From Xanthomonas sp. 3793 (GTDB lineage: Bacteria; Pseudomonadota; Gammaproteobacteria; Xanthomonadales; Xanthomonadaceae): a DNA stretch of 64,000 nt. The DNA is taken from contig NZ_JANTYU010000001.1 of the NCBI RefSeq assembly GCF_024806835.1, positions 248,001 through 312,000 of the forward strand. Direction: 5' to 3'. The notes under the pieces are model-generated. The model was not told the DNA's origin. It did no database searches and was given only the letters and a program-made list of their open reading frames with translations. Of this stretch, positions 9,510 through 64,000 are shown piece by piece; position 1 is the stretch's first letter; each line of letters starts with the position of its first letter. Both the position numbers and the translations under genes were made by a program.

Positions 9510-9750
9510 AGCTCATTCTATCGCGGCGGGGCGTTATCGCATTGCAGCCATGTGGTGTTGCGCGGACGCGACAGGACTCGCACGGTCGCACAGGCGTTCG
9601 CGGCACTGATGCACGTTGGCGACCGCATCCGGAGCACGACAGGCGCCGTGCAGACGCCTTCGCGCAGAAAGGCGCGATATCCGCGGGCAAAGCGCAAGGG
9701 GCTCGGAGCGCAGCCTGACGATGCAGAGTCAGTGCCCCGCAACTACAGGG

Positions 9751-47128: not shown

Positions 47129-47139
47129 GGTAAACGCCC

Positions 47140-50219: not shown

Positions 50220-50311
50220 TTTGCAGCAGAAAACCTGCGTTTTCTTCGCTCCTGCGCGTGAGCACTTGCGCAGGCGGACGGAGTTTATTTTTCGAACAGT
50301 TATACCAACGC

Positions 50312-50338
50312 TAAAGATTGACGGGGTGCTGCCGAATA
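50312..50338 (+). promoter_or_regulatory. Distal sigma-28 promoter of fliC
   Basis: TAAAGATT (50312-50319), an 11-base spacer and GCCGAATA (50331-50338) fit the FliA consensus at 13 of 16 positions or nearly so. Transcription would start near 50345. Confidence 0.8.
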
Positions 50339-50415
50339 AACCAAACCCCTTGATACACAACGCTTACGCATTTCGTCCCGCAGCAGAAAAACAGTAAAAA
50401 AATACTGGATTTCGC

Positions 50416-50442
50416 TAAAGGTTCCCGACGCAACGCCGTTAT
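50416..50442 (+). promoter_or_regulatory. Proximal sigma-28-like promoter of fliC
   Basis: TAAAGGTT (50416-50423), an 11-base spacer and GCCGTTAT (50435-50442) form a second FliA-type site 104 bases after the first. The -10 is the same as in the flgM promoter. Confidence 0.65.
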
Positions 50443-50537
50443 TCATCTCAGCAGCGGCAACGGCCAACTTGATGGCCCCCCTGCGGAGGCTCCGGGCAAG
50501 TCCCCCTTGCCGGAAAAATCGCTTAGGAGAAATCAAA

Positions 50538-51737
50538 ATGGCACAGGTAATCAACACCAACGTAATGTCGCTGAACGCTCAGCGTAACCTCAACACCAGC
50601 AGCGCCAGCATGTCGACGAGCATCCAGCGTCTGTCGTCTGGTCTGCGCATCAACAGCGCCAAGGACGACGCCGCAGGTCTGGCGATCTCCGAGCGTTTCA
50701 CCACGCAGATCCGCGGCCTTGACGTTGCCTCGCGCAACGCCAACGACGGCATCTCGCTGGCCCAGACCGCCGAAGGCGCGATGGTCGAAATCGGCAGCAA
50801 CCTGCAGCGTATCCGCGAGCTGTCGGTGCAGTCGTCCAACGCCACCAACTCGGCCACCGACCGCGACGCGCTGAACTCGGAAGTCAAGCAGCTCACCGCC
50901 GAAATCGACCGCGTTGCCAACCAGACCAACTTCAACGGCACCAAGCTGTTGAACGGCGACTTCTCCGGCGCGCTGTTCCAGGTCGGCGCCGACGCCGGCC
51001 AGACCATCGGCATCAACAGCATCGTCGACGCCAACGTCGATTCGCTGGGCAAGGCCAGCTTCGCCGCCGCCGTCTCCGGCGCTGGCGTGACCGGCACCGC
51101 CACCGCGTCGGGTTCGGTCTCCGGCATGAGCCTGTCCTTCAATGACGCCAGCGGCGCGGCCAAGAGCGTCACCATCGCCGACGTCAAGGTCGCTTCCGGC
51201 GACACCGCTGCCGACGTGAACAAGAAGGTCGCTGCGGCCATCAACGACAAGCTGGACCAGACCGGCATGTACGCCTCGATCAAGACCGACGGTACGTTGC
51301 AGATCGAATCGCTGAAGGCTGGCCAGGACTTCACCTCGCTGACTGCCGGCACTTCCAGCGCCACCGGCATCACCGTCGGCGCCGGCCTCACCACCGCCTC
51401 GGCCGCTTCCGGCTCCACCGCGTCGACCCTGAGCAGCCTGGATATCTCCACGTTCTCCGGCTCGCAGAAGGCCCTGGAAATCGTCGACAAGGCGCTGACC
51501 GCGGTCAACTCCTCGCGCGCCGACATGGGTGCGGTGCAGAACCGCTTCACCTCCACCATCGCCAACCTGAGCGCCACCTCGGAAAACCTGTCGGCTTCGC
51601 GTAGCCGTATCCGCGACACCGACTACGCCAAGGAAACCGCCGAACTGACCCGCACGCAGATCCTGCAGCAGGCCGGTACCGCGATGCTGGCCCAGGCCAA
51701 GTCGGTTCCGCAGAACGTGCTGAGCCTGCTGCAGTAA
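50538..51737 (+). CDS. fliC: Flagellin FliC
   Basis: A 399-residue filament protein with conserved N- and C-terminal helices (MAQVINTNVMSLNAQRNLN and ARSRIRDTDYAKETAEL-like SRSRIRDTDYAKETAELTRT) around a Ser/Thr/Ala-rich variable centre that could carry O-glycans. The flg22 region lies at residues 30-51 and has Asp at residue 43, the form linked to FLS2 recognition in plants. A strong AGGAGA site precedes the ATG, and a terminator follows the gene. The nearby modification genes at 59-64 kb probably decorate this protein. Confidence 0.97.
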   Translation: MAQVINTNVMSLNAQRNLNTSSASMSTSIQRLSSGLRINSAKDDAAGLAISERFTTQIRGLDVASRNANDGISLAQTAEGAMVEIGSNLQRIRELSVQSSNATNSATDRDALNSEVKQLTAEIDRVANQTNFNGTKLLNGDFSGALFQVGADAGQTIGINSIVDANVDSLGKASFAAAVSGAGVTGTATASGSVSGMSLSFNDASGAAKSVTIADVKVASGDTAADVNKKVAAAINDKLDQTGMYASIKTDGTLQIESLKAGQDFTSLTAGTSSATGITVGAGLTTASAASGSTASTLSSLDISTFSGSQKALEIVDKALTAVNSSRADMGAVQNRFTSTIANLSATSENLSASRSRIRDTDYAKETAELTRTQILQQAGTAMLAQAKSVPQNVLSLLQ

Positions 51738-51775
51738 CTTGCCTGAGGCATCAGCAGCGCTTTGCAGCGAATCAA

Positions 51776-51801
51776 AAGCCCCTCTTCGGAGGGGCTTTTT
51801 T
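51776..51801 (+). terminator. Rho-independent terminator after fliC
   Basis: A 9-bp stem AAGCCCCTC (51776-51784) with GAGGGGCTT (51789-51797), TTCG tetraloop, is followed by further T residues. It lies 39 bases after the fliC stop. Confidence 0.9.
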
Positions 51802-51840
51802 GTGGGCGCGGATTTTTTGACGCCGGGCGATTGACGCGGC

Positions 51841-51856
51841 AGGCACGGAAGTTGCA
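51841..51856 (+). promoter_or_regulatory. Sigma-54 promoter of fliD
   Basis: AGGCACGGAAGTTGCA has GG and GC ten bases apart and a perfect TTGCA -12 element; only the first base of the -24 (A for T) departs from the consensus. It lies about 117 bases before the fliD ATG. Confidence 0.78.
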
Positions 51857-51972
51857 TCAGCGTTGCGGTCAGCCAGACGTATCGGCGCCGCTCAAGTCCC
51901 CCCGGATGCGGCCGATACCCGTCTGGTAATCCCATGCATCCGCTGTCCGGATGCCCAGACGAGGAATGCAAC

Positions 51973-53298
51973 ATGGCATCGGTGATCAGTACGTCCAGCT
52001 CCGGGCTGGATATCCCCACCGTGGTGTCCACCCTGGTATCCCGTCAGAAGGATCCGGAGCAGGCGCGCATCAACAAGGCCGGCACCGCAGCGACCACGCA
52101 GCTGTCGGCCATCAGCCAGATCAAGAGCAGCATGACCACGCTCAAGTCTGCGCTGGACAAGGTCGTCAGCAGCGCCGATACCAACGCCTACAAGGCCACG
52201 GTCCCCACCGATGCCGGCTTTACCGCCACCACCACCAGTTCGGCCGCTCCCGGCAACTACTCGGTGGAAGTGGTCTCGCTGGCCAGCGCGCAAAAGCTCG
52301 CCTCCGGCGCGTTCACCGCCGATGCCACCGTCGGCAGCGGCACGCTGACCATTGGCTACGGCGACAAAAGCATCACCGTGGACATCAGCGGCACCGACAA
52401 GCTCACCGACATCGCCGCCGCCATAAACAAGGCCGCCGGTGGCAAGGGCGTCACTGCCAGCGTGGTGACCGCCAACGATGGCCAGCACCTGGTGTTCAAC
52501 GCGGTCGACTCCGGCACCAAGGGCGCATTGACCGTCAGTGCCAGCGACCCCAGCCTGAGCGGGCTCACCTATGGCCCCGGCGTCACCGGCGGGTTGAACC
52601 AGACCGTGGCCGCCGCCGATGCGCTGGTGCGCGTGGACGGCTTCGAGCGCACCTCCAGCTCCAACACCATCAGCGACATCGTGCCGGGCGTGGTGCTCAA
52701 CCTGACCAAGGCCGCCGAAGGCACCAAGGTCAACCTGGGCGTTGCGGCCGACACCAGCGGCCTGAAGGCCAACCTCACCGCCTACGCGGCCGCCTACAAC
52801 ACCGCCAATACCTTGCTGGCCAAGAGCAGCGCCTACGACGCCACCACCAAGACCGCCGCGGCCTTGACCGGCGACTCGCTGGTGCGCAGCCTGCAACAGC
52901 AACTGCGCGGCCAGGTCAGTGGCAACCTTACCGAACTCAAGGCGCTGGGCCTGAACATCGACAAGGATGGCGTGATGAGCTTCGACGGCGGCAAGTTCGA
53001 CACCGCCATCGCCGCCGACGGCGGCGCCGCTGCCGAGGTGTTCGGCAAGGACAGCAAATACGGCTCGGCCATGACCAAGTTGCTGGACAGCAACGTCAAC
53101 GCCACCAATGGCACCCTGACCCTGCGTTCGGACAGCTTGAACAAGACCATCAAGGGCTACGAGTCCGACCTGGACGACCTCGACGCGCGCATGACCAAGC
53201 TCTCCGATCGCTACACCGCGCAGTTCACCGCGATGGAAACCATGATCAGCAAGCTGCAGAGCAGCACCAGCTCGCTCAGCAGCCTGCTGACAAGCTGA
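51973..53298 (+). CDS. fliD: Flagellar filament capping protein FliD
   Basis: A 441-residue cap protein that folds exported flagellin at the filament tip. The N-terminus has STSSSGLDIPTVVSTLVSRQ and the C-terminus a coiled coil (LNKTIKGYESDLDDLDARMT and QFTAMETMISKLQSSTSSLS). ATG 51973 has a GAGGAA site. Unlike fliC it has a sigma-54 promoter, so it should be made before flagellin. Confidence 0.95.
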   Translation: MASVISTSSSGLDIPTVVSTLVSRQKDPEQARINKAGTAATTQLSAISQIKSSMTTLKSALDKVVSSADTNAYKATVPTDAGFTATTTSSAAPGNYSVEVVSLASAQKLASGAFTADATVGSGTLTIGYGDKSITVDISGTDKLTDIAAAINKAAGGKGVTASVVTANDGQHLVFNAVDSGTKGALTVSASDPSLSGLTYGPGVTGGLNQTVAAADALVRVDGFERTSSSNTISDIVPGVVLNLTKAAEGTKVNLGVAADTSGLKANLTAYAAAYNTANTLLAKSSAYDATTKTAAALTGDSLVRSLQQQLRGQVSGNLTELKALGLNIDKDGVMSFDGGKFDTAIAADGGAAAEVFGKDSKYGSAMTKLLDSNVNATNGTLTLRSDSLNKTIKGYESDLDDLDARMTKLSDRYTAQFTAMETMISKLQSSTSSLSSLLTS

Positions 53299-53316
53299 TT
53301 TCCGTGATGCCAGTCC

Positions 53317-53344
53317 TCAAGTCGTACGCCGATGTTGCCGATAC
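53317..53344 (+). promoter_or_regulatory. Tentative sigma-28 promoter of fliS
   Basis: TCAAGTCG (53317-53324), a 12-base spacer and GCCGATAC (53337-53344) lie about 106 bases before the fliS start. The -10 is identical to that of the chemoreceptor gene. The -35 is weaker and the spacer one base longer than usual. Confidence 0.4.
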
Positions 53345-53449
53345 AAGAAGTACCTATCGTGATGTCGGCCTTGCCTCTTGGCAGGAGCGTTGTCGCAGGA
53401 GCACCCCGCTCCGGGACCAGCGAAGGCCAGCCAATTGAGGGAGTCATCC

Positions 53450-53863
53450 ATGTACGGTTCCAATCGTCAATATGCCGAGCAATACCGCAAGGTCGGCGTG
53501 TCCACCAGCGTCACCGAAGCCGACCCGCACAAGCTGGTGTCGCTGTTGTTCGCCGGTGCCTGCCAGCGCATCCGCCTGGCCCAGGCCTGCATGGTGCAGG
53601 GCGACCAGGCACGCAAGGGCAAGGCCATCGGCGAAGCCTGCGCGATCGTCGGTCATTTGAACGGCTCGCTCGATCACGAAGCCGGTGGCGAAATCGCTGG
53701 TAACCTGTCGGCCCTGTACGACTACGTCATGCAGCGCCTGACCGCTGCCAACCTGCACAACGACGAGACCGCGTTGACCGAAGCGCTGGATCTGCTCAGC
53801 GAAATCGATTCGGCGTGGAACTCCATTCCCCTCGAACAACGCGGCCTCGCTGCGGTTTCCTGA
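53450..53863 (+). CDS. fliS: Flagellar secretion chaperone FliS
   Basis: A 137-residue helical chaperone that binds the C-terminus of flagellin. It has YAEQYRKVGVSTSVTEADPH and KLVSLLFAGACQRIRLAQ, both typical of FliS. ATG 53450 has a GAGGGAG site; a longer frame upstream lacks similarity. The FliT-like gene follows after eight bases. Confidence 0.93.
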   Translation: MYGSNRQYAEQYRKVGVSTSVTEADPHKLVSLLFAGACQRIRLAQACMVQGDQARKGKAIGEACAIVGHLNGSLDHEAGGEIAGNLSALYDYVMQRLTAANLHNDETALTEALDLLSEIDSAWNSIPLEQRGLAAVS

Positions 53864-53871
53864 GTCCAGCC

Positions 53872-54165
53872 ATGCACAGCGCGCAAAGCCTCCAAGCCGA
53901 AATCGCCGACCTCCGCCTTGCCATGGCGCAAGAGGATTTCGAGGCGATGCCGTTCCTGCTCGACAGCCACGACCTGCACTTGCGCGAGTATGCGCAGCAC
54001 GCGGATCTGAGCCAGGACCGCGACGCGCTGCAGACCTTGCAGACGATGCAGCAGGATTTGATGCGGATGATGCTCGACCGTCGCCGCAAGCTCCTGGATC
54101 TGATCCGCGCCCAGCGCACCTCCTCTTCGGCCAGCCGCGCCTACGCCCGGGTCGGACGGATCTGA
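53872..54165 (+). CDS. fliT: FliT-like flagellar protein
   Basis: A 97-residue, all-helical, charged protein (LQAEIADLRLAMAQEDFEAM, then LDSHDLHLREYAQ and a basic tail RRRKLLDLIRAQR). Size, helix content and position after fliS are those of FliT, the chaperone of FliD; direct sequence similarity is weak, as is usual for the family. Its stop overlaps the start of the PilZ-like gene by one base. Confidence 0.65.
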   Translation: MHSAQSLQAEIADLRLAMAQEDFEAMPFLLDSHDLHLREYAQHADLSQDRDALQTLQTMQQDLMRMMLDRRRKLLDLIRAQRTSSSASRAYARVGRI

Positions 54166-54737
54166 TGACCGCGCTCGGCACACTCGCGCCCTCCGCCGAT
54201 GCCGAGCTGTTTGCCGACACGCTCAGTTGCGAACTGCGTCTGCCGGCCGGCTTCCGCGCCGGTGCCGATGCCGATGCGGGCTCGCACAGTGCCGCAGAGA
54301 CGCTGCTGCGCAGCCTGGGCCAGGTCGAAGACCTGCGTAGCGATGAGAGCAGCGAAGACCGTGGCGAACTGCCGCTGCTGGTGCAGCGGATGGACGCCAA
54401 GCTCGATCTGATGCTCGCGCTGATCGGCCGCCTGGTGCGCCAGGGAGACAGCGGCCTGATCCAGACCATGGTGCATTGGTCGGTCCGCGGGATCCGCCTG
54501 AATTGCGCAACCAGCCACGCGCCGGGCACGACCGGCAGCGTCTGCCTGCAACCATCCGACTGGCTTCCTGAATTGGTACAGCTTCCGGCCGAGGTACTGG
54601 CCAGCGCAAGCGATGGTCACGATCAATGGCTTTGGCTGCGGTTCGCGCCACTCTCACCCGGGTTGCAGGAGGCTCTGGAACGTCATCTGTTTCGTCTGCA
54701 TCGCCGTCAGATCGCCGACGCCCGCCGCCAGCGCTGA
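54165..54737 (+). CDS. PilZ-like domain protein
   Basis: A 190-residue cytosolic protein. The central helix (LPLLVQRMDAKLDLMLALIG) is followed by a PilZ-like beta segment with VHWSVRGIRL, which resembles the (D/N)XSXXG motif of PilZ domains, here with His. The N-terminal RXXXR motif needed for c-di-GMP binding is not seen. A PilZ protein at this place in Xanthomonas campestris is reported to affect motility; this is by context. It could act as a c-di-GMP-independent partner of the flagellar machinery. Confidence 0.65.
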   Translation: MTALGTLAPSADAELFADTLSCELRLPAGFRAGADADAGSHSAAETLLRSLGQVEDLRSDESSEDRGELPLLVQRMDAKLDLMLALIGRLVRQGDSGLIQTMVHWSVRGIRLNCATSHAPGTTGSVCLQPSDWLPELVQLPAEVLASASDGHDQWLWLRFAPLSPGLQEALERHLFRLHRRQIADARRQR

Positions 54738-54807
54738 TCCCGATGGTTGGCGCCGGGCGCCGGGTCGGCTAAGGTGCCCCATACCGAAAAAAGGTCTCTT
54801 CTGCGCC

Positions 54808-55440
54808 GTGCGAGTCATCATCGTCGACGATCACACCCTTGTCCGTGCAGGCCTGTCCAGGCTGCTGCAAACCTTTGCCGGCATCGATGTCGTCGGTGAG
54901 GCCAGCAACGCGCAACAAGCCCTGGACATGACATCCCTGCATCGCCCGGATCTGGTGCTGATGGACCTGTCCCTGCCCGGCCGTAGCGGTCTGGACGCCA
55001 TGACCGACGTGCTGCGCGCCGCACCACGCACCCATGTGGTGATGATGTCGATGCACGACGACCCTGTGCATGTGCGCGATGCGCTCGATCGTGGCGCGGT
55101 CGGTTTCGTGGTCAAGGACGCTGCGCCGCTGGAGCTGGAACTGGCGCTGCGCGCTGCCGCTGCCGGCCAGGTGTTCCTGAGCCCGCAGATCTCGTCCAAG
55201 ATGATTGCGCCGATGCTGGGCCGCGAAAAACCGGTGGGTATTGCGGCGCTGTCGCCGCGCCAGCGCGAGATCCTGCGCGAGATCGGTCGCGGCCAGAGCA
55301 ACAAGGAAATTGCCGCCGACCTGGGCATCAGCGTCAAGACGGTGGAGACCCATCGCGCGCGCATGATGGAGTCGCTGGGCTGCCGCCGCGCCAACGACCT
55401 GGTCCTGCTGGCCGCCAAGCATCACAACGAACTGGTCTGA
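54808..55440 (+). CDS. NarL/LuxR-family response regulator
   Basis: A 210-residue regulator. The receiver domain (1-115) has VDDHTLVRAG and the phosphoacceptor D53 in LVLMDLSLPG. The LuxR helix-turn-helix (about 145-205) has LSPRQREILREIGRGQSNKE and VKTVETHRARMMESLG. The GTG start at 54808 gives the canonical MRVIIVDDH N-terminus. No kinase gene is adjacent. It lies between the fliS block and rpoN2 and may be a flagellar regulator. Confidence 0.9.
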   Translation: MRVIIVDDHTLVRAGLSRLLQTFAGIDVVGEASNAQQALDMTSLHRPDLVLMDLSLPGRSGLDAMTDVLRAAPRTHVVMMSMHDDPVHVRDALDRGAVGFVVKDAAPLELELALRAAAAGQVFLSPQISSKMIAPMLGREKPVGIAALSPRQREILREIGRGQSNKEIAADLGISVKTVETHRARMMESLGCRRANDLVLLAAKHHNELV

Positions 55441-55460
55441 GCGATTGCAGCCGCAATCGC
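55441..55460 (+). repeat. Hairpin after the NarL-type regulator gene
   Basis: A perfect 8-bp inverted repeat, GCGATTGC (55441-55448) with GCAATCGC (55453-55460), begins directly after the stop codon. There is no T tract, so it is only a weak terminator candidate. Confidence 0.45.
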
Positions 55461-55520
55461 CGTATCGGTGACTCGAAGGACCCGGCGCGGCCCGCACAGG
55501 GCTGCCGCAACGAAAACAGT

Positions 55521-55534
55521 GACGGAATTCCGTC
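55521..55534. promoter_or_regulatory. Perfect palindrome upstream of rpoN2
   Basis: GACGGAATTCCGTC is a perfect 14-base palindrome 160 bases before the rpoN2 start, in a region where no sigma-54 or sigma-28 site was found. It could be an operator for a dimeric regulator; the binding protein is unknown. Confidence 0.35.
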
Positions 55535-55693
55535 GGGCACGCTTGAGCTCGCCCATCCTGTCAGGGGATTCCCGACACGCTGTCAGGAAAATCATGAGCC
55601 ACCTCACCCGACTCCCTGATTAGAAACCCGTCGCTTTGTCCTGCAAGATGCGTTCCATCGCTGCCGCATGCAGCGCCCTTCGGAAGCGCTTCC

Positions 55694-57097
55694 ATGAAGA
55701 CGACCATTTCCGCCCAGCTTGGCCAGCAACTGCACCTCACCCCGCAGCTGCTGCAGTCGATCCGTCTGTTGCAACTGGACGGCATGCAGTTGGAACTGGA
55801 AATCCGTCGCGCCCTGGAAACCAATCCGTTGCTGGAGTTGGAAGAGCTGGCCGATAACGGGGACGAGGCCGCCACCAACGACGATGGCGCCAGCGATGTC
55901 GCCGCCTTCGACGAGCTGCCGGAAAGCACGATGTGGGACGTGCAGAGCAGTAGCTGGAACGATGGCGACGACGACCGCATGCAGCGCGTGGCCGCCGGCG
56001 AGTCCACCGACCCGCATGTGCGCATCCTGCGCGAACTGGCGCTGGACCTGGACGAGGCCGCATTGGGGGCCGCCGCGTTCTGGTTGGAGCAGACCGACGA
56101 TGCCGGGTATCTGACCGAGGCACTGTCGACGCTGCAGCAGCTCGGCGCCACGCGCCTGGGTATGACCGTCGAGGCAGTGGAAGCGAGCCGCCAACGCCTG
56201 TTGCACGGCGACCCGGCGGGCCTGGCCGCCTGCGATCTGCGCGAATGCCTGCAAGCCCAGTTGAGCGCCCTGCCCGGCCGCGTTCCGGCCCGTCATCTGG
56301 CCGCGCGCATCCTGGCCGGCGATCTGGATCTGCTGGCCGGCCACGACTACGCGCTGCTGGCGCGTGCGCACGATGCCGAAGTGGGCGATGCGCGCGAAGC
56401 GGTGCGGCTGATCCTGTCGCTGCAGCCGCGTCCGGGCGACGACCTGCTGCAAGAAAGCAACGCCAGCGTCATTCCGGATGTGCTCGCCTGGCATGCCGAT
56501 GGCAGCTGGCGCGTGGCGTTGAACCCGGCAACCACCCATCGCGTCAGCATCAACCCGGTGCACGAACGCGCGCTGGCAGAGGCCGGCGATGCCGCACAGC
56601 CGCTGCGCGACATGTTGCAGGAAGCGCGCTGGCTGACCCGCGGTCTGTCGATGCGCTACGAAACCCTGCTGCGCGCCACGCGTGCAATCGTCGAACGCCA
56701 GGCCGCCTTCCTGGCGCGCGGCGAAGAAGCGATGGCACCGCTGACCCTGAAGGAAATCGCCGACGAGATCGGCATGCACGAATCCACCATTTCGCGCATC
56801 ACCACCGGCAAATACCTGCAAACCCCGCGTGGCACCTTCGAACTCAAGCATTTCTTCGCCGTGCGGCTCGAAGGCGCCAGTGTCTCCGGCCAGGCGGTCA
56901 AGGCCATGGTGCGTCGCTTGATCGAGAGCGAGCCGGCGGGTCGCCCGCTGGCCGACGAAGCCATCGCCGGCCTGTTGTCGCGTCAGGGCGTTAATATTGC
57001 GCGGAGGACCGTGGCCAAGTACCGCGAACAACTGGACATCGCCCCGGCCCGCGAGCGCCGCCGTAACAACAAACCGCTGCTTGCGCGAGCGGGATAA
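55694..57097 (+). CDS. rpoN2: RNA polymerase sigma-54 factor RpoN (RpoN2)
   Basis: A 467-residue sigma-54. Region I has LGQQLHLTPQLLQSIRLLQL. The core-binding region and the helix-turn-helix (IGMHESTISRITTGKYLQTP) follow. The RpoN box ARRTVAKYR is at about residues 436-444. It lies in the flagellar cluster with fleQ, which is the RpoN2 arrangement of Xanthomonas, where a second rpoN exists elsewhere in the genome. It should read the sigma-54 promoters of flgB, flgG, fliD and the modification island. Confidence 0.94.
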   Translation: MKTTISAQLGQQLHLTPQLLQSIRLLQLDGMQLELEIRRALETNPLLELEELADNGDEAATNDDGASDVAAFDELPESTMWDVQSSSWNDGDDDRMQRVAAGESTDPHVRILRELALDLDEAALGAAAFWLEQTDDAGYLTEALSTLQQLGATRLGMTVEAVEASRQRLLHGDPAGLAACDLRECLQAQLSALPGRVPARHLAARILAGDLDLLAGHDYALLARAHDAEVGDAREAVRLILSLQPRPGDDLLQESNASVIPDVLAWHADGSWRVALNPATTHRVSINPVHERALAEAGDAAQPLRDMLQEARWLTRGLSMRYETLLRATRAIVERQAAFLARGEEAMAPLTLKEIADEIGMHESTISRITTGKYLQTPRGTFELKHFFAVRLEGASVSGQAVKAMVRRLIESEPAGRPLADEAIAGLLSRQGVNIARRTVAKYREQLDIAPARERRRNNKPLLARAG

Positions 57098-57105
57098 GGA
57101 CTACT

Positions 57106-57489
57106 ATGAGCAAACTCACCGTGCTGCTGGTCGACGACCACGAGGGCTTCATCAACGCTGCGATGCGTCATTTTCGCAAAGTGGAGTGGCTCAACATCGT
57201 GGGCAGTGCCGCCAATGGACTGGAAGCGATCGAGCGCTCTGAGTCGCTGCGCCCCAATGTCGTGTTGATGGATCTGGCCATGCCCGAGATGGGCGGCCTG
57301 CAGGCCACGCGTCTGATCAAGACACAGGACGATCCGCCGTATATTGTCATCGCGAGCCACTTCGACGATGCCGAGCATCGTGAACACGCTCTTCGCGCGG
57401 GTGCTGACAATTTTGTCAGCAAGCTGTCCTATATCCAGGAAGTCATGCCAATCCTGGAGGGCCTGACGGAAGGAGCCAGGAATGAGTGA
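57106..57489 (+). CDS. Single-domain response regulator (lone receiver)
   Basis: A 127-residue receiver domain without an output domain. It has LLVDDHEGFINAAMRHF, the phosphoacceptor D56 in VVLMDLAMPEMGG and the conserved lysine region FVSKLSY. It starts eight bases after rpoN2 and overlaps fleQ by eight bases, so it is made together with both. It may modulate FleQ or RpoN2 activity, or act on the motor; the sequence does not tell. Confidence 0.85.
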   Translation: MSKLTVLLVDDHEGFINAAMRHFRKVEWLNIVGSAANGLEAIERSESLRPNVVLMDLAMPEMGGLQATRLIKTQDDPPYIVIASHFDDAEHREHALRAGADNFVSKLSYIQEVMPILEGLTEGARNE

Positions 57490-58966
57490 GTCCCGCATTC
57501 TGTTGATCGACAGTGACGCCGTGCGCGCCGAGCGCACCGTCTCGCTGCTCGAGTTCATGGACTTCAATCCCCGCTGGGTCACCGACGGCGCCGACATCAA
57601 TCCTGGCCGTCACCGCCACGATGAGTGGATGGCGGTGATGGTGGGCTCGGCGCAGGACGCCGCGCAGGCCGACAAATTCTTCGACTGGCTGGCCGATGCC
57701 AAGCTGCCGCCGCCGGTGCTGTTGATGGAAGGCAGCCCGACCACGTTTGCGCAGACCCATGGCCTGCACGAAGCCAATGTCTGGGCGCTGGACACGCCGC
57801 TGCGCCACGCGCAGCTGGAAGCGCTGCTGCGCCGCGCAAGCCTCAAGCGCCTGGATGCCGAGCACCAGGCCGGCGTGCAACAGGACACCGGGCCGACCGG
57901 CAACAGCGAGGCGGTCACCCGCCTGCGCCGGCTGATCGACCAGGTGGCAGCGTTCGACACCACGGTGCTGGTGCTGGGCGAATCGGGCACCGGCAAGGAG
58001 GTCGTCGCGCGCGCCATCCACCAGCACTCGCCCCGCCGTGATGGGCCGTTCGTGGCGATCAACTGCGGCGCGATCCCGCCGGACCTGCTGGAAAGCGAAC
58101 TGTTCGGCCACGAAAAAGGCGCCTTCACCGGTGCGCTGACCACCCGCAAGGGCCGCTTCGAAATGGCCGAGGGCGGTACCCTGCTGCTCGACGAAATCGG
58201 CGACATGAGCCTGCCGATGCAGGTGAAGTTGCTGCGCGTGCTGCAGGAACGCAGTTTCGAGCGTGTTGGCGGCGGCCAGACCATCCGCTGCAATGTGCGC
58301 GTGATCGCCGCCACCCACCGCAATCTGGAAACCCGCATCAGCGACGGGCAGTTCCGTGAGGACCTGTTCTATCGCCTCAACGTGTTCCCGATCGAAATGC
58401 CGGCGTTGCGCGAGCGCGTCGACGATCTGGCCAGCCTGGTGCAGACGATCGCCGGCCAGCTGGCGCGTACCGGTCGCGGCGAAGTGCGCTTTGCCGATGA
58501 GGCGCTGCAGGCGCTGCGCAGCTACGACTGGCCGGGCAACGTGCGCGAACTGACCAACCTGGTGGAGCGCCTGGCGGTGTTGCATCCGGGTGGGTTGGTG
58601 CGCGTACAGGACCTTCCGGCGCGCTATCGCGGCGACTTCGCATCGTCCATTCCGGTCGAGTTGCCGCCGGAGCCGGCCCTGGTGGCGGCGCCTGCCGACG
58701 TCAACGCCTTGCCTAGCAATGTGGTGACGCTGCAACCCAAGACCGCCGACGCCGAACCGGTCTCTGCTGCCAGCCTGCCCGACGATGGCATCGACCTGCG
58801 TGGCCATATGGCCAACATCGAGCTGGCCCTCATCAACGAGGCGCTGGAACGCACCCAGGGGGTGGTTGCGCATGCAGCCCAGTTACTCGGCCTGCGCCGC
58901 ACCACGCTGGTGGAGAAGCTGCGCAAGTACGGCATCGACCGCGAGCAGACCGAGCTGGCGAACTGA
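57482..58966 (+). CDS. fleQ: Sigma-54-dependent flagellar master regulator FleQ
   Basis: A 494-residue enhancer-binding protein. The N-terminal receiver-like domain (1-120) lacks a phosphoacceptor Asp (VMVGSAQD at the expected place). The AAA+ domain has Walker A GESGTGKE (166-173), the sigma-54 contact loop GAFTGA (213-218) and LLLDEIGDMS. A Fis-type helix-turn-helix (AAQLLGLRRTTLVEKLRKYG) ends it. FleQ activates flagellar sigma-54 promoters and is controlled by c-di-GMP in related bacteria. It overlaps the receiver gene. Confidence 0.94.
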   Translation: MSESRILLIDSDAVRAERTVSLLEFMDFNPRWVTDGADINPGRHRHDEWMAVMVGSAQDAAQADKFFDWLADAKLPPPVLLMEGSPTTFAQTHGLHEANVWALDTPLRHAQLEALLRRASLKRLDAEHQAGVQQDTGPTGNSEAVTRLRRLIDQVAAFDTTVLVLGESGTGKEVVARAIHQHSPRRDGPFVAINCGAIPPDLLESELFGHEKGAFTGALTTRKGRFEMAEGGTLLLDEIGDMSLPMQVKLLRVLQERSFERVGGGQTIRCNVRVIAATHRNLETRISDGQFREDLFYRLNVFPIEMPALRERVDDLASLVQTIAGQLARTGRGEVRFADEALQALRSYDWPGNVRELTNLVERLAVLHPGGLVRVQDLPARYRGDFASSIPVELPPEPALVAAPADVNALPSNVVTLQPKTADAEPVSAASLPDDGIDLRGHMANIELALINEALERTQGVVAHAAQLLGLRRTTLVEKLRKYGIDREQTELAN

Positions 58967-58993
58967 GCCGGCCACCGCTCCGCCAGCGCCCGC

Positions 58994-59009
58994 TGGCATA
59001 GCGCTTGCT
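58994..59009 (+). promoter_or_regulatory. Sigma-54 promoter of the sugar/acyl modification island
   Basis: TGGCATAGCGCTTGCT matches TGGCA(C)-N5/6-TTGC(A/T), with GG and GC ten bases apart. It lies 28 bases after the fleQ stop and 73 bases before the aminotransferase ATG. Confidence 0.8.
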
Positions 59010-59082
59010 TCAACAGGATCACTCCGTCCGCAACCGCCGATTGCGGCGGAATCCCGACATCCACCGTCCCAGCGAGGCATTG

Positions 59083-60192
59083 ATGCCCATCCCCGTCACC
59101 AGTCCGCTGCTGCCGCCGCTGGAAGACTTTCTGCCGTACCTGGAACGGATCTGGACCAGTCGCACCGTCAGCAACGGGGGGGAGATGCACCGTGCGCTCG
59201 AGCAGGCGCTGTGCGACTACCTGGGAGTGCCGCATCTGGCCCTGCTGACCAACGGCACTACCGCGTTGATCACCGCCCTGCAGGCGCTGCGCATCACCGG
59301 CGAAGTCATCACCACCCCCTACTCCTTCGTGGCCACGGCGCACTCGTTGCTGTGGAAGAGCATCACTCCGGTATTCGTGGATATCGACCCGGTGACGCTC
59401 AACATGGACCCGTCCAAGATCGAGGCGGCCATCACCCCGCAGACCACCGCGATCATGCCGGTGCATTGCTATGGCACCGCGTGCGATACCACTGCCATCA
59501 CCCGCATCGCCGACATCTACAACCTCAAGGTGATCTACGACGCAGCGCATGCGTTTGGCGTGCGCGATGCCGGCGGATCGATCCTGCGCCACGGCGACCT
59601 GAGCGTGTTGAGCTTTCATGCCACCAAGGTATTCAACACCTTCGAGGGCGGCGCCATCGTGTGCCCGGACGAAAGAACCTACCAACGCATCGGGCATCTG
59701 AAGAATTTCGGCTTCGTCGACGAAACCACGGTGGTGGCACCGGGCATCAACGGCAAAATGAACGAAATCAGCGCGGCATTCGGCCTGTTGCAGCTCAAGC
59801 ATATCGACGAAGCCATTGCGCAGCGCCGCGCCATCGACGCGCAATACCGGCAACGATTGAGCGAGGTGCGTGGCATCCGCTGCGTCGCAGCACCGCAGCA
59901 TTCCAGCGCCAATCATGCGTATTTTCCGATCCTGGTGCGGGACGACTACCCGCTGGCGCGCGATGCGCTGTACCAATTGATGCGCGAGCACGGCATCCTG
60001 GCACGACGGTATTTCTATCCGTTGATCAGCGACTTCCCGATGTATCGCGCCCTGCCCTCGTCGGCACCGGCGCGGCTGCCGGTAGCGCGCTCGGTGGCCG
60101 CCCAAGTATTGTGCCTGCCGATCTTTCCCGGTTTGACCAGCGAACAGGTCGATACCATTGCCGACCTGATCGCCGGCGCACAGGCAACATGA
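59083..60192 (+). CDS. vioA: DegT/DnrJ/EryC1 sugar-nucleotide aminotransferase, VioA-like
   Basis: A 369-residue PLP enzyme. The fold signatures are LTNGTTALITALQAL, PYSFVATAHSLLWK and the PLP lysine K182 in SFHATKVFNTFEGGA. VioA converts dTDP-4-keto-6-deoxyglucose to dTDP-4-amino-4,6-dideoxyglucose (viosamine) for flagellin glycans in Pseudomonas syringae; the local genes fit that use. The sugar nucleotide substrate is inferred, not proven. ATG 59083 follows a sigma-54 promoter; a longer upstream frame overlaps that promoter. Confidence 0.85.
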   Translation: MPIPVTSPLLPPLEDFLPYLERIWTSRTVSNGGEMHRALEQALCDYLGVPHLALLTNGTTALITALQALRITGEVITTPYSFVATAHSLLWKSITPVFVDIDPVTLNMDPSKIEAAITPQTTAIMPVHCYGTACDTTAITRIADIYNLKVIYDAAHAFGVRDAGGSILRHGDLSVLSFHATKVFNTFEGGAIVCPDERTYQRIGHLKNFGFVDETTVVAPGINGKMNEISAAFGLLQLKHIDEAIAQRRAIDAQYRQRLSEVRGIRCVAAPQHSSANHAYFPILVRDDYPLARDALYQLMREHGILARRYFYPLISDFPMYRALPSSAPARLPVARSVAAQVLCLPIFPGLTSEQVDTIADLIAGAQAT

Positions 60193-60256
60193 TCGCACCA
60201 CGCTGCACCTGCATTTCAGACTCCCATCTCTTCAACAGGCAACCAGGCGAGCTCGC

Positions 60257-60481
60257 ATGACCCAGGCAACATTTATCGAGAACTTCCTCTCCGCCACCGA
60301 CTTCCAGGAGCCGGTGGAGGTCACACTGGACACCGTACTACTGGAATTGCCGGAGTGGGACTCGCTGGCAGCGTTGGGCGTGATCGTCATGTTCGACATG
60401 GAATACAGCAAGACCATCACCGGCGAAGATCTCACTGCCGCCGTCACCGTCGGCGATCTCTACAAACTGACCGAGGCGTAA
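60257..60481 (+). CDS. Acyl carrier protein
   Basis: A 74-residue acidic ACP. The 4'-phosphopantetheine serine is S36 in PEWDSLAALGVIVMF. Helix 2 and the acidic surface are conserved. It is clearly not the housekeeping AcpP. A stand-alone ACP next to a condensing enzyme suggests a dedicated short acyl chain. It lies 64 bases after the aminotransferase and five bases before the KAS III-like gene. Confidence 0.88.
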   Translation: MTQATFIENFLSATDFQEPVEVTLDTVLLELPEWDSLAALGVIVMFDMEYSKTITGEDLTAAVTVGDLYKLTEA

Positions 60482-60486
60482 GCACC

Positions 60487-61527
60487 ATGCCGACCTCCAC
60501 GCTGCACAATGTCCGCTTTGCCGGCATGGCGACCTGCGTGCCGAAGCGGGTCGTGTCCAATCTCACCGACTGCCGGCCGCAGATCCGCTCCGAGCGCGAG
60601 CGCCTGGTGCGCAACATCGGCATCGAGACGCGCCGCATGGCGTCGGAGTGGCAGTGCTTTTCCGACCTGGCTTTCGATGCGACTGAGGTACTGCTGGAAA
60701 AACTGCAGTGGAAGCGCGAGGAGATCGATGCGCTGATCGTGGTGACGCAGTCGCCGGATTACCCGATCCCCGCCACCGCCATCATCCTGCAGGACAGACT
60801 TGGGCTGTCGCACGCCACGGTCGCGTTCGATGTAAACCTGGGCTGCTCGGCCTACCCGTTCGGCATCAACCTGCTCGGCTCGATGATCGCCGCCGGCGGC
60901 GTCAAGAAGGGCCTGCTGCTGGTCGGCGACCGCAGCGCCAACCTGGAAGACCCGATCTTCTCCGACTCCGGCACCGCCACCGCGCTGGAGTTCAGCGCCG
61001 ACGCGCCACCGATGTATTTCGACCTCAACAGCGATGGCAGCGGCTACAAGGCGATCATCCTGCCCGTGGGCGGGCACCGTGAACCGGTCGGCATACAGCA
61101 CCTTGTGCCCTACCGCGAGGAAGCAGATGGCCCGTGGAAGCGCGGTGTGGATCTGCAGCTCGACGGCGTGGCCGTGCTGAGCTTCTCAACCCAGCGCATC
61201 CCGCCCGCAGTGCAGAAAATGCTGGACTACACCGGCGTTTCCAAGGATGAGATCGATTATTTCGTGTTCCACCAAGCCAACCGCATGATCAACGAAACCA
61301 TCCGTAAGAAGCTCGGTCTGCCGGTGGAAAAAGTTCCCTCTACGCTGCGCGACTTCGGCAATACCAGCGGCGCCTCGCTGCCGGTGACCATGACTGCGCG
61401 GATCAACAAGGAACTCGAATCCGGGCCCAAACGCGTGTTGCTGTGCGGCTTCGGCATCGGGCTGTCGTGGGGCACCTGCCTGGTGGATATCAAGGGTGCG
61501 GTGTTTCCTGATTTGATCGAGTCGTGA
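60487..61527 (+). CDS. 3-oxoacyl-ACP synthase III (FabH-like)
   Basis: A 346-residue ketosynthase. The triad is intact: C120 in DVNLGCSAYPFG, H262 in FVFHQANRMI and N292 in GNTSGASLP. KAS III enzymes start acyl chains from acyl-CoA and malonyl-ACP. With the neighbouring ACP and reductases it could make a 3-hydroxyacyl group such as 3-hydroxybutyryl. Its stop overlaps the first dehydrogenase start (GTGA). Confidence 0.9.
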   Translation: MPTSTLHNVRFAGMATCVPKRVVSNLTDCRPQIRSERERLVRNIGIETRRMASEWQCFSDLAFDATEVLLEKLQWKREEIDALIVVTQSPDYPIPATAIILQDRLGLSHATVAFDVNLGCSAYPFGINLLGSMIAAGGVKKGLLLVGDRSANLEDPIFSDSGTATALEFSADAPPMYFDLNSDGSGYKAIILPVGGHREPVGIQHLVPYREEADGPWKRGVDLQLDGVAVLSFSTQRIPPAVQKMLDYTGVSKDEIDYFVFHQANRMINETIRKKLGLPVEKVPSTLRDFGNTSGASLPVTMTARINKELESGPKRVLLCGFGIGLSWGTCLVDIKGAVFPDLIES

Positions 61528-62288
61528 GCATGACGGCTGTGAGCACGGACACATTCGGGCTGCAAGACAAAACCATTTTGGTGACCGGTGCCTCCTCGGG
61601 CATCGGAGCAGCGGTCGCGGCACTGTGCGCCCGGCTCGGCGCGACCTTGGTACTGACCGGACGCGACGAAGCGCGCTTGACTGCCGTGGCCTCGGCATTG
61701 CACGGCAGCGGTCACAATGTGCTAGCAGGTGACCTCACCGAAGAAGCGACCCGCAAGCGGCTGGTGGATGCGGCGCCGGGCTATGACGGGCTGGCATCGT
61801 GTGCAGGCCTTGCCGCCTTGGTGCCGTTTCGGATGGCCGCAGAAAAACACCTGCAGCAAATGCTGTCGGTGAATTATCTGGCGCCGGTCAGCCTGACCCA
61901 GCAGTTGCTTGCCAAGAAGCGTTTACGCGGCTCCGCGTCGCTGGTCTATGTGACCGCACTCTCTGCACGTGCGGCGCCCCAGGCTGCAGCAGGATATGCC
62001 GCGTCCAAAGCCGCACTCGAGGCGGCAGTGCGCACGCTGGCATTGGAACAGGCCAAGCATGGCTTGCGCGCCAATTGCGTGGCGCCTGGCTATGTCGACA
62101 CACCCATGCTGAAAAAACTGGGCACGGCCGCCGACATGGACGACAAGATCGCACTGACGCCGCTGGGCCGCATCGATCCAGATGACGTCGCCAAGGGTGT
62201 GGCCTACCTGCTCTCAACTGCCAGCCGGTGGATCACCCGGAGCACGTTGACCATCGATGGCGGCATCTCACTGCCGATCCGCTTATGA
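61524..62288 (+). CDS. Short-chain dehydrogenase/reductase 1
   Basis: A 254-residue Rossmann enzyme. The NAD(P) motif is TGASSGIG, the catalytic serine lies in VTALSARAAP and the YXXXK pair in YAASK. The C-terminus has TIDGGISLP, typical of the ketoreductase branch (FabG type). The GTG start overlaps the KAS III stop; an ATG two codons on is an alternative start. It likely reduces the ACP-bound 3-ketoacyl chain. Confidence 0.88.
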   Translation: MSMTAVSTDTFGLQDKTILVTGASSGIGAAVAALCARLGATLVLTGRDEARLTAVASALHGSGHNVLAGDLTEEATRKRLVDAAPGYDGLASCAGLAALVPFRMAAEKHLQQMLSVNYLAPVSLTQQLLAKKRLRGSASLVYVTALSARAAPQAAAGYAASKAALEAAVRTLALEQAKHGLRANCVAPGYVDTPMLKKLGTAADMDDKIALTPLGRIDPDDVAKGVAYLLSTASRWITRSTLTIDGGISLPIRL

Positions 62289-63064
62289 GTCTGGAAATCC
62301 CTATGCCCGCTCCAGATACTATCTCAGCGTTGCTGCGCGACTTGTATGGATTGCACGGCAAGACTGTGCTGGTCACTGGCGCCTCTAAGGGCATCGGTGA
62401 GGCGGTAGCGCAGGCCTGTGCAAATGCGGGCGCGCAGCTGCTGATTGCAGGGCGCGACGAGCAACGCCTGCAAGCCACGCTCGCCGCGTTGCCGGGCGAT
62501 GGGCACCGCCTTTTTGCTGGCGACCTGAGCGATGCGGCTGCCGTGCAACAGCTCGCTGCTGACTGCGGGCCGGTCGACGGAGTGGTACACAGCGCTGGCA
62601 TTCGCGGGCTTTCGCCGATGAAGCTGGTCAGCGACAAATTTCTGCGCGAGGTGATGGACATCAACTACATGGCACCGGTGATGCTGACACGGCATCTGCT
62701 GGCGCGGCAGTCGCTGCGCCCCGGCGGCTCGGTGCTGTTCATTTCATCCATCGCCGCGCTCACCGGCACCGTCGGCGTCGGCCCTTACGCAGGCTCGAAA
62801 GCCGCCCTGATCGGTACCTTGCGCCCATTGGCACTGGAACTGGCACGGCGGAAGATTCGCGCCAATGCGCTTTGCCCGGGCCTGGTCGAGACCTCGTTGA
62901 TCAATAAGGACAAGGCCTGGTTCGAGGAAAGCCGCAAGCGCTATCCGCTGGGCATCGGCGACCCAAACGACGTGGCGCTGGCCTGTCTGTATTTTCTCTC
63001 GGACGCCAGTAGCAAAGTGACCGGCCAGGCTTTCAGTATGGATGGCGGCGTGGAATTCGCATGA
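62285..63064 (+). CDS. Short-chain dehydrogenase/reductase 2
   Basis: A 259-residue Rossmann enzyme. It has TGASKGIG, the catalytic serine in LFISSIAALTG and YAGSK. The C-terminus has FSMDGGVEFA. ATG 62285 overlaps the stop of the first dehydrogenase (ATGA). The two dehydrogenases are related but clearly different, so they probably act on different keto groups, one on the acyl chain and one on the sugar or on a second chain position. Confidence 0.88.
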   Translation: MSLEIPMPAPDTISALLRDLYGLHGKTVLVTGASKGIGEAVAQACANAGAQLLIAGRDEQRLQATLAALPGDGHRLFAGDLSDAAAVQQLAADCGPVDGVVHSAGIRGLSPMKLVSDKFLREVMDINYMAPVMLTRHLLARQSLRPGGSVLFISSIAALTGTVGVGPYAGSKAALIGTLRPLALELARRKIRANALCPGLVETSLINKDKAWFEESRKRYPLGIGDPNDVALACLYFLSDASSKVTGQAFSMDGGVEFA

Positions 63065-63708
63065 GCACTCGACCACGCTATCAGGTGTTGATCATCGGCG
63101 CCGGCGGCTTTGGCAAGGGTGTGGCAGCCATGGCCTATCACGACGATCCCGAGTACGGAACCGATTGGGAGATCAAGGGATTTTTGGATAGCCGCAGCGA
63201 GCTCGGCACTACGACGCGATGGCCGATTCTCGGAGATCCAGACAGCTACCAAATCGTCGAGAACGATCACTTCGTCTGCGCGCTGGGCGATCCTGCCGCA
63301 CGCCGTCGCTACACTCGCCCGCTGATCGAGCGTGGCGCCCACTTCATGATATTGCGGCCGCGCCTGCGCGAAGCATCACCCACGCCGATCGGACGCGGCA
63401 GTCTATTCGAAGTCGGCGTGTCCATCGGCGCCGACAGCCGCATCGGCGAGTTTGTCACCATCCTGGCCACCACCATCGTCGGTCACGATGTCACCATCGG
63501 TGACTACGTGCAGATCGGCAACTTCGTGTTCATCGGTGGCGGCGTGCGCATCGGCAACGACGTGACGATCCATCCGCATGCGACCTTACTGCCAGGGATC
63601 GCGGTGGGCGATGGCGCTTTGATCGGCGCCGGCAGCGTGGTGATCAAGGATGTCCCGCCAAACGTCACGGTGGCCGGCAATCCCGCACGCACCATCTTCA
63701 GCAAGTAG
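63061..63708 (+). CDS. Left-handed beta-helix sugar acyltransferase (NeuD/PglD/VioB type)
   Basis: A 215-residue protein. The N-terminal part has the nucleotide-sugar-binding GAGGFGKGVAAMAYHD. The C-terminal half consists of hexapeptide repeats (IGADSRIGEFVTILATTIVG, then GDYVQIGNFVFIGGGVRIGN) ending in AGNPARTIF. Enzymes of this family N-acylate amino-sugar nucleotides from acyl-CoA or acyl-ACP. Here it may join the ACP-made chain to the amino group made by the aminotransferase. It overlaps the preceding stop (ATGA). Confidence 0.88.
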   Translation: MSTRPRYQVLIIGAGGFGKGVAAMAYHDDPEYGTDWEIKGFLDSRSELGTTTRWPILGDPDSYQIVENDHFVCALGDPAARRRYTRPLIERGAHFMILRPRLREASPTPIGRGSLFEVGVSIGADSRIGEFVTILATTIVGHDVTIGDYVQIGNFVFIGGGVRIGNDVTIHPHATLLPGIAVGDGALIGAGSVVIKDVPPNVTVAGNPARTIFSK

Positions 63709-63722
63709 CAGGGCCCCGCACA

Positions 63723-64000
63723 ATGACCCGCCACGCACTCGATGCCGAGCACTACATCACCGAGCACAGCCTGCGCCTGGAACAGCAGCGGTTGTTCGGC
63801 AAGCTGTGGAATTTCGTCGGCTTTTCCTCAATGGTGCGCGAACGCAACCAGTTCTTTGCGCGCCAGGTGGCCGGCGTCCCGGTATTGGTCCAGCGCACCG
63901 ACGCAGGTATCCGCGCCTTCCTCAATCAGTGCCCGCATCGGCAGTCGGCGATCCAGATCGAACGCCACGGCAAGCGCCCGCTGGTCTGCCCTTACCACGC
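63723..64000 (+). CDS. Rieske [2Fe-2S] oxygenase (N-terminal fragment)
   Basis: The first 92 codons are visible; the gene continues past the right edge. The Rieske ligands are present as CPHR (near residue 71) and CPYH (near residue 89). The start MTRHALDAEHYITEHSL and the KLWNFVGFSS segment resemble the alpha subunits of ring-hydroxylating oxygenases. It starts 14 bases after the acyltransferase. A hydroxylation of the acyl chain or sugar is a possible role; the catalytic iron domain is not visible. Confidence 0.75.
   Translation, partial: MTRHALDAEHYITEHSLRLEQQRLFGKLWNFVGFSSMVRERNQFFARQVAGVPVLVQRTDAGIRAFLNQCPHRQSAIQIERHGKRPLVCPYH

What the first reader, a model, noticed from the sequence alone, without database searches (positions are those of the whole stretch)
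59083..64000. Seven-gene, coupled pathway for an acylated amino-sugar next to fleQ
Aminotransferase, ACP, KAS III, two ketoreductase-type dehydrogenases, a beta-helix acyltransferase and a Rieske protein follow each other with four-base overlaps or very short gaps. The sequence suggests that a 3-hydroxyacyl chain is built on a private ACP and attached to a dTDP-4-amino-sugar. A related modification (viosamine with a 3-hydroxybutanoyl group) is known on Pseudomonas syringae flagellin, and a glycosylation island (Gig-X) has been described in Xanthomonas. The exact sugar and acyl group here are open.
Basis: partly seen in the sequence, partly recalled or inferred. Interest (0 to 1): 0.75.

Follow-up and report, generated by a model that had tools for sequence, protein, structure and literature searches.

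The report
Flagellin sugar island with oxygenase pairs
This is the front half of a Xanthomonas gene island that very probably makes a decorated sugar for the flagellum; such islands are known, but this one points to a Rieske oxygenase and a beta-helix partner that form a gene pair, are inherited together and are exchanged between strains.

Summary
In detail: aminotransferase, ACP, KAS III, two SDRs, a VioB/NeuD-type acyltransferase and a Rieske oxygenase follow fleQ in one tight operon. It runs about 10 kb past the window: Rieske R1, LbH protein L1, a second Rieske R2, LbH L2, a broken sulfotransferase-like gene, an FkbM methyltransferase, an 1184-aa glycosyltransferase, then fliE. A conserved sigma54-type site lies 89 nt before the first gene.

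Sugar and acyl group remain undetermined.

What my searches did not find in print is the Rieske-LbH pair. Its Rieskes form one clade. LbH follows 48 of 52 such Rieske ORFs (44 loci, several proteobacterial families) and none in 35 loci with more distant Rieskes. Rieske and LbH distances correlate at 0.94, against 0.69 with equally adjacent NeuD. LbH has the PerB/PglD fold but rarely PerB's His (3 of 30). Between two genomes of one species the 8.6 kb from KAS III to the glycosyltransferase is replaced, while flagellin is identical at 394 of 399 residues. I read the pair as a tailoring oxygenase for the activated amino-sugar (inference).

The parts
57482..58966 (+). fleQ, sigma54-dependent flagellar regulator, directly upstream
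   Evidence: Pfam FleQ 72 bits, Sigma54_activat 246 bits; orthologue upstream of the aminotransferase in 18 of 19 mapped relatives
58994..59009 (+). sigma54-type -24/-12 site TGGCATAGCGCTTGCT, 89 nt before the aminotransferase start codon
   Evidence: 2 matches in the window, 0.32 expected; a TGGCN7TTGC match 73-97 nt upstream of the aminotransferase in 23 of 27 loci, at -146 in 1, none in 3 (28 loci given, L045 has no aminotransferase start)
59083..60192 (+). DegT/DnrJ sugar-nucleotide aminotransferase (VioA-like), 369 aa
   Evidence: PF01041 339 bits; top NCBIfam model DesI 285.7 bits (below its cut-off of 650); best solved chain 2po3
60257..60481 (+). private acyl carrier protein, 74 aa, with a WDSL serine
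   Evidence: PF00550 E 0.005, 17.5 bits (under the cut-off of 20.8); motif read from sequence
60487..61527 (+). beta-ketoacyl-ACP synthase III, 346 aa; last gene of the conserved front part
   Evidence: DNA 98.7% identical to a second genome of the species up to 61520
61530..62288 (+). SDR1, ketoreductase-type dehydrogenase (alternative GTG start 61524); first gene of the exchangeable block
   Evidence: (42% identical to SDR2)
62285..63064 (+). SDR2, ketoreductase-type dehydrogenase
63061..63708 (+). NeuD/VioB-family sugar N-acyltransferase (PglD N-domain plus left-handed beta-helix)
   Evidence: TIGR03570 170.6 bits over its cut-off of 160.8; best solved chain VioB 7txp, E 5.6e-24; His142 column is His in 28 of 34 loci, Tyr in 5, gap in 1
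63723..64000 (+). Rieske oxygenase R1, first part (gene is 63723-64862 on the window scale, 379 aa, L003:5224-6363). Followed outside the window, on the same scale, by L1 64859-65488, R2 65526-66671, L2 66661-67284, g11 about 67316-68205 (frame interrupted), FkbM methyltransferase 68326-69927, glycosyltransferase 70115-73669, fliE from about 74257
50538..51737 (+). fliC flagellin, 399 aa, presumed acceptor of the glycan (acceptor role inferred)
   Evidence: Flagellin_N 161 bits, Flagellin_C 104 bits; 394 of 399 residues identical between two genomes of the species that carry different glycan blocks

Best explanation
The locus is the Xanthomonas flagellin-glycosylation island, a viosamine-type pathway extended by Rieske-LbH pairs. 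The aminotransferase makes a dTDP-4-amino-4,6-dideoxy sugar. KAS III and the SDR reductase(s) build a short 3-hydroxyacyl chain on the private ACP. The NeuD/VioB-type enzyme puts that chain on the 4-amino group. Each Rieske oxygenase with its LbH partner (R1-L1, R2-L2) then oxidises the activated, acylated sugar; LbH holds the nucleotide-sugar or finishes the product by a second acyl transfer. FkbM-type methylation follows, and the large glycosyltransferase moves the sugar to flagellin or to its glycan stem. The front (aminotransferase to KAS III) and back (glycosyltransferase) are nearly constant; the middle from SDR1 onward is an exchangeable block that sets the variant. Shown here: gene content, order, sigma54-type site, conservation, block exchange between two genomes, Rieske-LbH coupling. 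Known from relatives: the role in flagellin glycosylation. Inferred: every chemical step, and above all the substrate of the Rieske enzymes.
Against: No product has been measured; sugar and acyl group are unknown. Pairs of the same Rieske-LbH family also stand alone, away from any ACP/KAS genes, in a second genus of the family (all 5 such loci fetched), so the pair is not tied to acyl building. L094 and L096 lack KAS III nearby (end-of-contig or short sequence). No Rieske reductase was recognised in the island. The aminotransferase and KAS III match NCBIfam models only below their curated cut-offs. The ACP is under Pfam's cut-off. The neighbouring g11 is broken in this genome, so parts of the pathway may be decaying. 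In many beta-proteobacterial loci no flagellar gene was found within the fetched stretch of at most 21 kb, so flagellin is not the only possible target of this pathway type. The high-scoring Rieskes are by construction the relatives of Xanthomonas island rows.
Confidence: 0.66

Rival explanations
1. Plain viosamine pathway: the core makes the same 3-hydroxybutanoyl-viosamine as in P. syringae, and the Rieske-LbH genes serve another, unrelated reaction (for example on a host compound or lipid) and only sit in the operon.
For: The core set equals the P. syringae viosamine island, whose seven listed ORFs include no Rieske gene. Stand-alone Rieske-LbH pairs exist. The nearest Rieske folds are demethylases of small amines.
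Against: LbH has the fold of nucleotide-amino-sugar acyltransferases and keeps the N..R motif of the PerB N-terminal domain. Co-location with KAS III in 42 of 44 loci over several families. In one search the 13 g7 genomes with a weaker second copy (424-453 bits; two pieces of 267 and 118 bits in G239) all also carry a strong copy; the strong copy was seen in the flagellar island in the three of these genomes whose strong copy I fetched (G040, G228, G309).
Confidence: 0.15
2. The LbH proteins are true second acyltransferases: the Rieske enzyme creates a hydroxyl on the sugar or acyl chain and L1/L2 acylate that position from acyl-ACP or acetyl-CoA.
Against: The column of PerB His141 is His in only 3 of 30 LbH rows; the only invariant non-glycine residues, N67 and R70, are in the N-domain; the close co-inheritance with the Rieske gene suggests a nearer tie than successive steps.
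Confidence: 0.35
3. The island decorates lipopolysaccharide or another surface polymer rather than flagellin.
For: Many beta-proteobacterial relatives of the cluster show no flagellar gene within the fetched stretch.
Against: Position between fleQ and fliE in Xanthomonas, a sigma54-type site, published flagellin phenotypes of the island in X. oryzae, and a fliC match near the cluster in Pseudomonas dryadis, a Pseudomonadaceae MAG and Paracidovorax valerianellae.
Confidence: 0.05

Closest known systems
Flagellin glycosylation island gigX1-gigX10 of Xanthomonas oryzae pv. oryzae (Yu et al. 2018; only its title in reference lists and passages of a review seen; the paper is not held)
   Same: Genus, flagellar cluster with rpoN2-fleQ, control by RpoN2/FleQ (site here). 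By recall its first genes are a transaminase, an ACP and a KAS III.
   Different: 13 genes counted here (aminotransferase to glycosyltransferase, g11 broken), with two Rieske-LbH pairs; how many pairs gigX has, and the gene-by-gene correspondence, could not be read.
Viosamine island of Pseudomonas syringae pv. tabaci 6605 (PMC3927599, parts 1-2 of 5 read)
   Same: vioA, acp, vioS (KAS III), vioR, vioB, methyltransferase and a glycosyltransferase of 1173 aa, making 3-hydroxybutanoyl-2-O-methyl-viosamine on flagellin.
   Different: That island has 7 ORFs, one reductase, no Rieske or extra LbH gene, and lies between gs and hk.
PglD/PglB/PerB/VioB left-handed beta-helix sugar N-acetyltransferases
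   Different: The PerB His141 column is His in only 3 of 30; a 3-residue insertion in the FVA..N..R loop; translationally coupled to a Rieske gene.
Rieske monooxygenases for aliphatic amines (stachydrine demethylase, CntA, GbcA)
   Same: Domain order, iron-sulphur and iron-site residues, fold (TM by model length 0.66-0.77 for the stachydrine demethylase and CntA rows; sequence).
   Different: Only 19-21% identical over the model; GbcA equivalog scores 85 and 91 bits against a cut-off of 670; separate clade in a tree with 8 other Rieskes.

Membership tests
Viosamine-type acyl-amino-sugar island | DegT/VioA aminotransferase + private ACP + KAS III + ketoreductase + VioB-type acyltransferase in one cluster | tested here: met
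   ACP weak by Pfam (17.5 of 20.8 bits)
Viosamine-type acyl-amino-sugar island | methyltransferase and large mVio glycosyltransferase in the cluster | tested here: met
   FkbM methyltransferase and 1184-aa GT2 protein; orthology to VioM/VioT not tested
Viosamine-type acyl-amino-sugar island | product is an N-(3-hydroxybutanoyl) 4-amino-4,6-dideoxyglucose on flagellin | not testable with these tools
   needs mass spectrometry or NMR
Xanthomonas gigX flagellin glycosylation island | location in the flagellar cluster next to rpoN2-fleQ | tested here: met
   that gigX lies there in X. oryzae is partly recalled (one search says flagellar cluster with rpoN2-fleQ and glycosylation proteins)
Xanthomonas gigX flagellin glycosylation island | control by RpoN2/FleQ | tested here: inconclusive
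   sigma54-type site at 58994-59009, conserved; control itself shown only in X. oryzae
Xanthomonas gigX flagellin glycosylation island | gene-by-gene identity with gigX1-10 | not tested
   paper not held
Rieske non-haem iron oxygenases | CxH / CxxH cluster ligands and His-His-Asp/Glu iron site | tested here: met
   C69, H71, C88, H91, H192, H197, E336, D337 invariant in 15 rows; Pfam Rieske and Ring_hydroxyl_A over cut-off for R1 and R2
PglD/PerB/VioB N-acetyltransferases (for L1, L2) | fold: PglD-type N-domain plus left-handed beta-helix | tested here: met
   for the L2 homologue of X. hortorum; L1 by sequence only
PglD/PerB/VioB N-acetyltransferases (for L1, L2) | catalytic His in the beta-helix (PerB His141) | tested here: not met
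   column is A 10, P 7, S 3, H 3, Y 2, E 2, R 1, M 1, Q 1 of 30
PglD/PerB/VioB N-acetyltransferases (for L1, L2) | NeuD_NnaD family score TIGR03570 over 160.8 bits | tested here: not met
   L1 62.8 bits, L2 71.3 bits

The most novel reading that the evidence does not exclude
The Rieske and LbH proteins form a two-component sugar oxygenase of a kind that my searches found nowhere described: an LbH trimer descended from amino-sugar acyltransferases, mostly without their catalytic histidine but with the nucleotide-sugar-binding domain, docks on a Rieske trimer and presents dTDP-bound acylamino-sugars for C-H oxidation. One or two such pairs, taken from at least three subfamilies (R1, R2, R3) and exchanged as part of a cassette, would set a 'flagellar glycan serotype' that can switch within a species while flagellin itself stays nearly constant.
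Probability: 0.3. Interest if true: 0.75.

Novelty: new variant of a known kind. Interest (0 to 1): 0.5.

Why it matters
Flagellin glycans can affect how plants sense flagellin (general knowledge, not tested here). In one pair of genomes of the same species the glycan block is replaced with sharp borders at the KAS III stop and the glycosyltransferase start, so the decoration can change while the flagellin hardly does. The Rieske-LbH pair would be an oxidative tailoring step on nucleotide-sugars that I found in no paper; it recurs in Gamma- and Betaproteobacteria and can be tested with purified proteins.

Tried and rejected
Considered and dropped: (1) that every gig-type Rieske lies beside KAS III: refuted by the stand-alone pairs of genus g7. 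(2) That the double pair is unique to this genome: among 35 Xanthomonas genomes only G000 has both types, but two pairs in tandem occur in L076, L078, L082, L083 and L084, and 13 of 15 g7 genomes with a hit have a second, weaker copy. (3) That L1/L2 are ordinary acetyltransferases: His not conserved; left open as a rival. (4) That L057 and L093 lack LbH: wrong, the ORF picker missed it. (5) Class-wide frequency of the Rieske: 1 of 369 sampled genomes (the own genome) at E 1e-60, so nothing learned beyond rarity in that sample. KAS III in 369 genomes: 4 matches, the own one and three of 36-39% identity. (6) Tandem repeat between the glycosyltransferase and fliE: none found in the own genome. 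(7) Literature: in searches (20 of 28 hits listed; 4 of 4; 3 of 3; 20 of 61; 0 hits) of an open-licence library I saw no title or abstract joining Rieske genes with flagellin or nucleotide-sugar modification; the one relevant hit is an annotation table that lists XCV2007 as a Rieske protein beside an acetyltransferase and SDRs (PMC3826837, passages).

The distance correlations carry no significance test and the sequences are related (Spearman R-L 0.87, R-NeuD 0.70). The A1 profile was built from Xanthomonas rows, so high scores favour close relatives. 10 of the 35 weak loci are shorter than 12 kb, so absence of KAS III there is less telling. The PerB His column rests on one profile alignment. 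In the tree the program flags long branches.
Full report
WHAT IS THERE. The window is bases 248001-312000 of contig 1 of a 5.21-Mb, 14-contig genome. The intergenic distances are 64, 5, +2 (or -4), -4, -4 and +14 nt, so 'overlap or very short gap' holds for all but the first. fleQ ends 116 nt before the aminotransferase. Pfam confirms RpoN, FleQ, flagellin, FliE and FliF.

BEYOND THE WINDOW. Fetching the next stretch shows that the operon goes on for about 10 kb: R1 63723-64862, L1 64859-65488, R2 65526-66671, L2 66661-67284, g11, an FkbM methyltransferase, an 1184-aa protein with GT2 domains, then fliE and fliF. R1 and R2 are 32% identical and L1 and L2 31%, so the Rieske-LbH unit looks like a diverged, duplicated pair. 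g11 has weak sulfotransferase similarity in its relatives L041, L048 and L054 (all below Pfam's cut-off), and in this genome its N-terminal coding stretch lies in another frame than the rest.

REGULATION. A sigma54-type site, TGGCATAGCGCTTGCT, lies at 58994-59009. The window holds two such sites against 0.32 expected (2 of 100 shuffles had two); the other (38699) lies about 32 nt before a flagellar rod gene. Of 27 loci with an aminotransferase start (28 given), 23 have a match 73-97 nt upstream, P. dryadis has one at -146, and L041, L048 and L054 have none. This fits the published control of gigX1-10 by RpoN2/FleQ in X. oryzae (PMC8657755, passages).

WHAT IS ALREADY KNOWN. The core is the viosamine set of P. 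syringae pv. tabaci 6605 (vioA, acp, vioS, vioR, vioB, vioM, vioT), where mass spectrometry of mutants shows loss of modified viosamine (PMC3927599, parts 1 and 2 of 5). In X. oryzae an acetyltransferase in the flagellar region is required for flagellin glycosylation (cited in PMC4875605, passage). The ten-gene gigX paper is not held.

THE RIESKE-LBH PAIR. In 44 loci there are 52 Rieske ORFs or pieces scoring at least 190 bits; in the other 35 loci the best is 140 bits or less. KAS III is found within the fetched locus in 42 of the 44 and in 0 of the 35. The two without are L094 (match 179 nt from the contig end) and L096 (broken gene on a short contig). An LbH gene follows 46 of 52, plus L057 and L093, so 48 of 52; the others are L060 (contig ends), L094, a piece in L096 (whose second piece is followed by LbH), and the middle copy in L097. 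None of the 35 weak loci has one by the LbH profile. Hosts by record title include Xanthomonas, Pseudoxanthomonas, Pseudomonas, Oxalicibacterium, Massilia, Variovorax, Acidovorax, Paracidovorax and Methylobacillus.

COUPLING. Of 36 R2-labelled pairs 28 overlap by 11 nt, Massilia and Paracidovorax among them, and of 9 R1-labelled pairs 8 overlap by 4 nt (the label is the nearer window-genome Rieske, start codons are my choice). On 26 loci with one pair, pairwise distances correlate R-L 0.94, R-NeuD 0.69, L-NeuD 0.65 and R-KAS 0.32. NeuD is as near to the Rieske gene as LbH is, so adjacency alone does not explain 0.94; relatedness is not corrected for. In the tree the high-scoring Rieskes form one clade (SH-aLRT 100) with R1, R2 and a beta-proteobacterial group (R3) of the upstream copies in tandem loci; long branches are flagged there by the program.

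AGAINST A STRICT TIE TO ACYL BUILDING. In a second genus of the family (g7), 13 of 15 genomes with a hit have a second, weaker Rieske copy (in one, G239, it is in pieces). In 5 of 5 such loci fetched it stands with an LbH gene but without ACP or KAS III. So the pair is a unit of its own. In one search no g7 genome has only the weaker copy.

EXCHANGE. Of 35 Xanthomonas genomes, 31 carry an island-type Rieske: 8 of type R1 (63% or more to R1) and 24 at the R2 level (30-34% to R1; 12 of the 23 relatives were mapped and are R2), and only the window genome has both. Against G006, which the tool labels the same species, DNA is 98.7% identical from 45952 to 61520; blastn finds only parts of R1 (73%) and L1 (74%) from 61521 to 70142; identity is 95.8% from 70143 (glycosyltransferase) and 99.3% from 74018. 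The replaced block is 8.6 kb here and 10.8 kb there, its borders lie at the KAS III stop and the glycosyltransferase start, and FliC is identical at 394 of 399 residues. This is one comparison of two genomes. GC in the second half of the block is 0.56-0.61, against 0.63-0.70 from the glycosyltransferase onward. Over the mapped loci aminotransferase (88-99%), KAS III (71-97%) and glycosyltransferase (83-94%) stay similar, while SDRs, NeuD, Rieske, LbH and cargo vary far more. In X. melonis a C-terminal remnant of a second NeuD lies just before R2, which looks like a scar of such joining.

READING. I take the island as a viosamine-type pathway extended by one or two oxidative tailoring units. 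That it serves flagellin: about 0.9. That the core makes an N-(3-hydroxyacyl) 4-amino-4,6-dideoxy sugar: about 0.75. That Rieske-LbH acts on the activated sugar or its acyl chain: about 0.7. That LbH is a subunit or presenting partner rather than a second acyltransferase: close to even. All are judgements, not measurements.

Noticed in passing
window scale about 67316-68205 (L003 about 8817-9706): g11, a weakly sulfotransferase-like gene, is interrupted in frame here but is a longer single ORF in X. melonis (L054) and X. maliensis (L048); some Xanthomonas flagellar glycans might be sulfated.
   Followed up: partly
L045 / L057 (X. arboricola pv. juglandis CFBP 2528): The fliD 5' part is directly followed by the middle of KAS III; fliS, rpoN2, fleQ, the aminotransferase and the ACP are missing there.
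   Followed up: no
L140-L143, L146 (genus g7): Stand-alone Rieske-LbH pairs outside the flagellar cluster, with no ACP or KAS gene nearby; substrate unknown.
   Followed up: partly
L097 (Bordetella hinzii LMG 13501): Three Rieske genes with two KAS III genes in one 14-kb cluster, and LbH partners whose N-terminal part looks different.
   Followed up: no
L041, 5383-8500: A 321-aa ORF starting VMSINAVQFQ occurs twice in opposite orientation around an FkbM-like gene in the glycan block, possibly a mobile element bringing cargo.
   Followed up: no
NeuD column of His142: The catalytic-type His of NeuD/VioB is Tyr in 5 of 34 loci (L073, L082, L083, L084, L087), all beta-proteobacterial.
   Followed up: no
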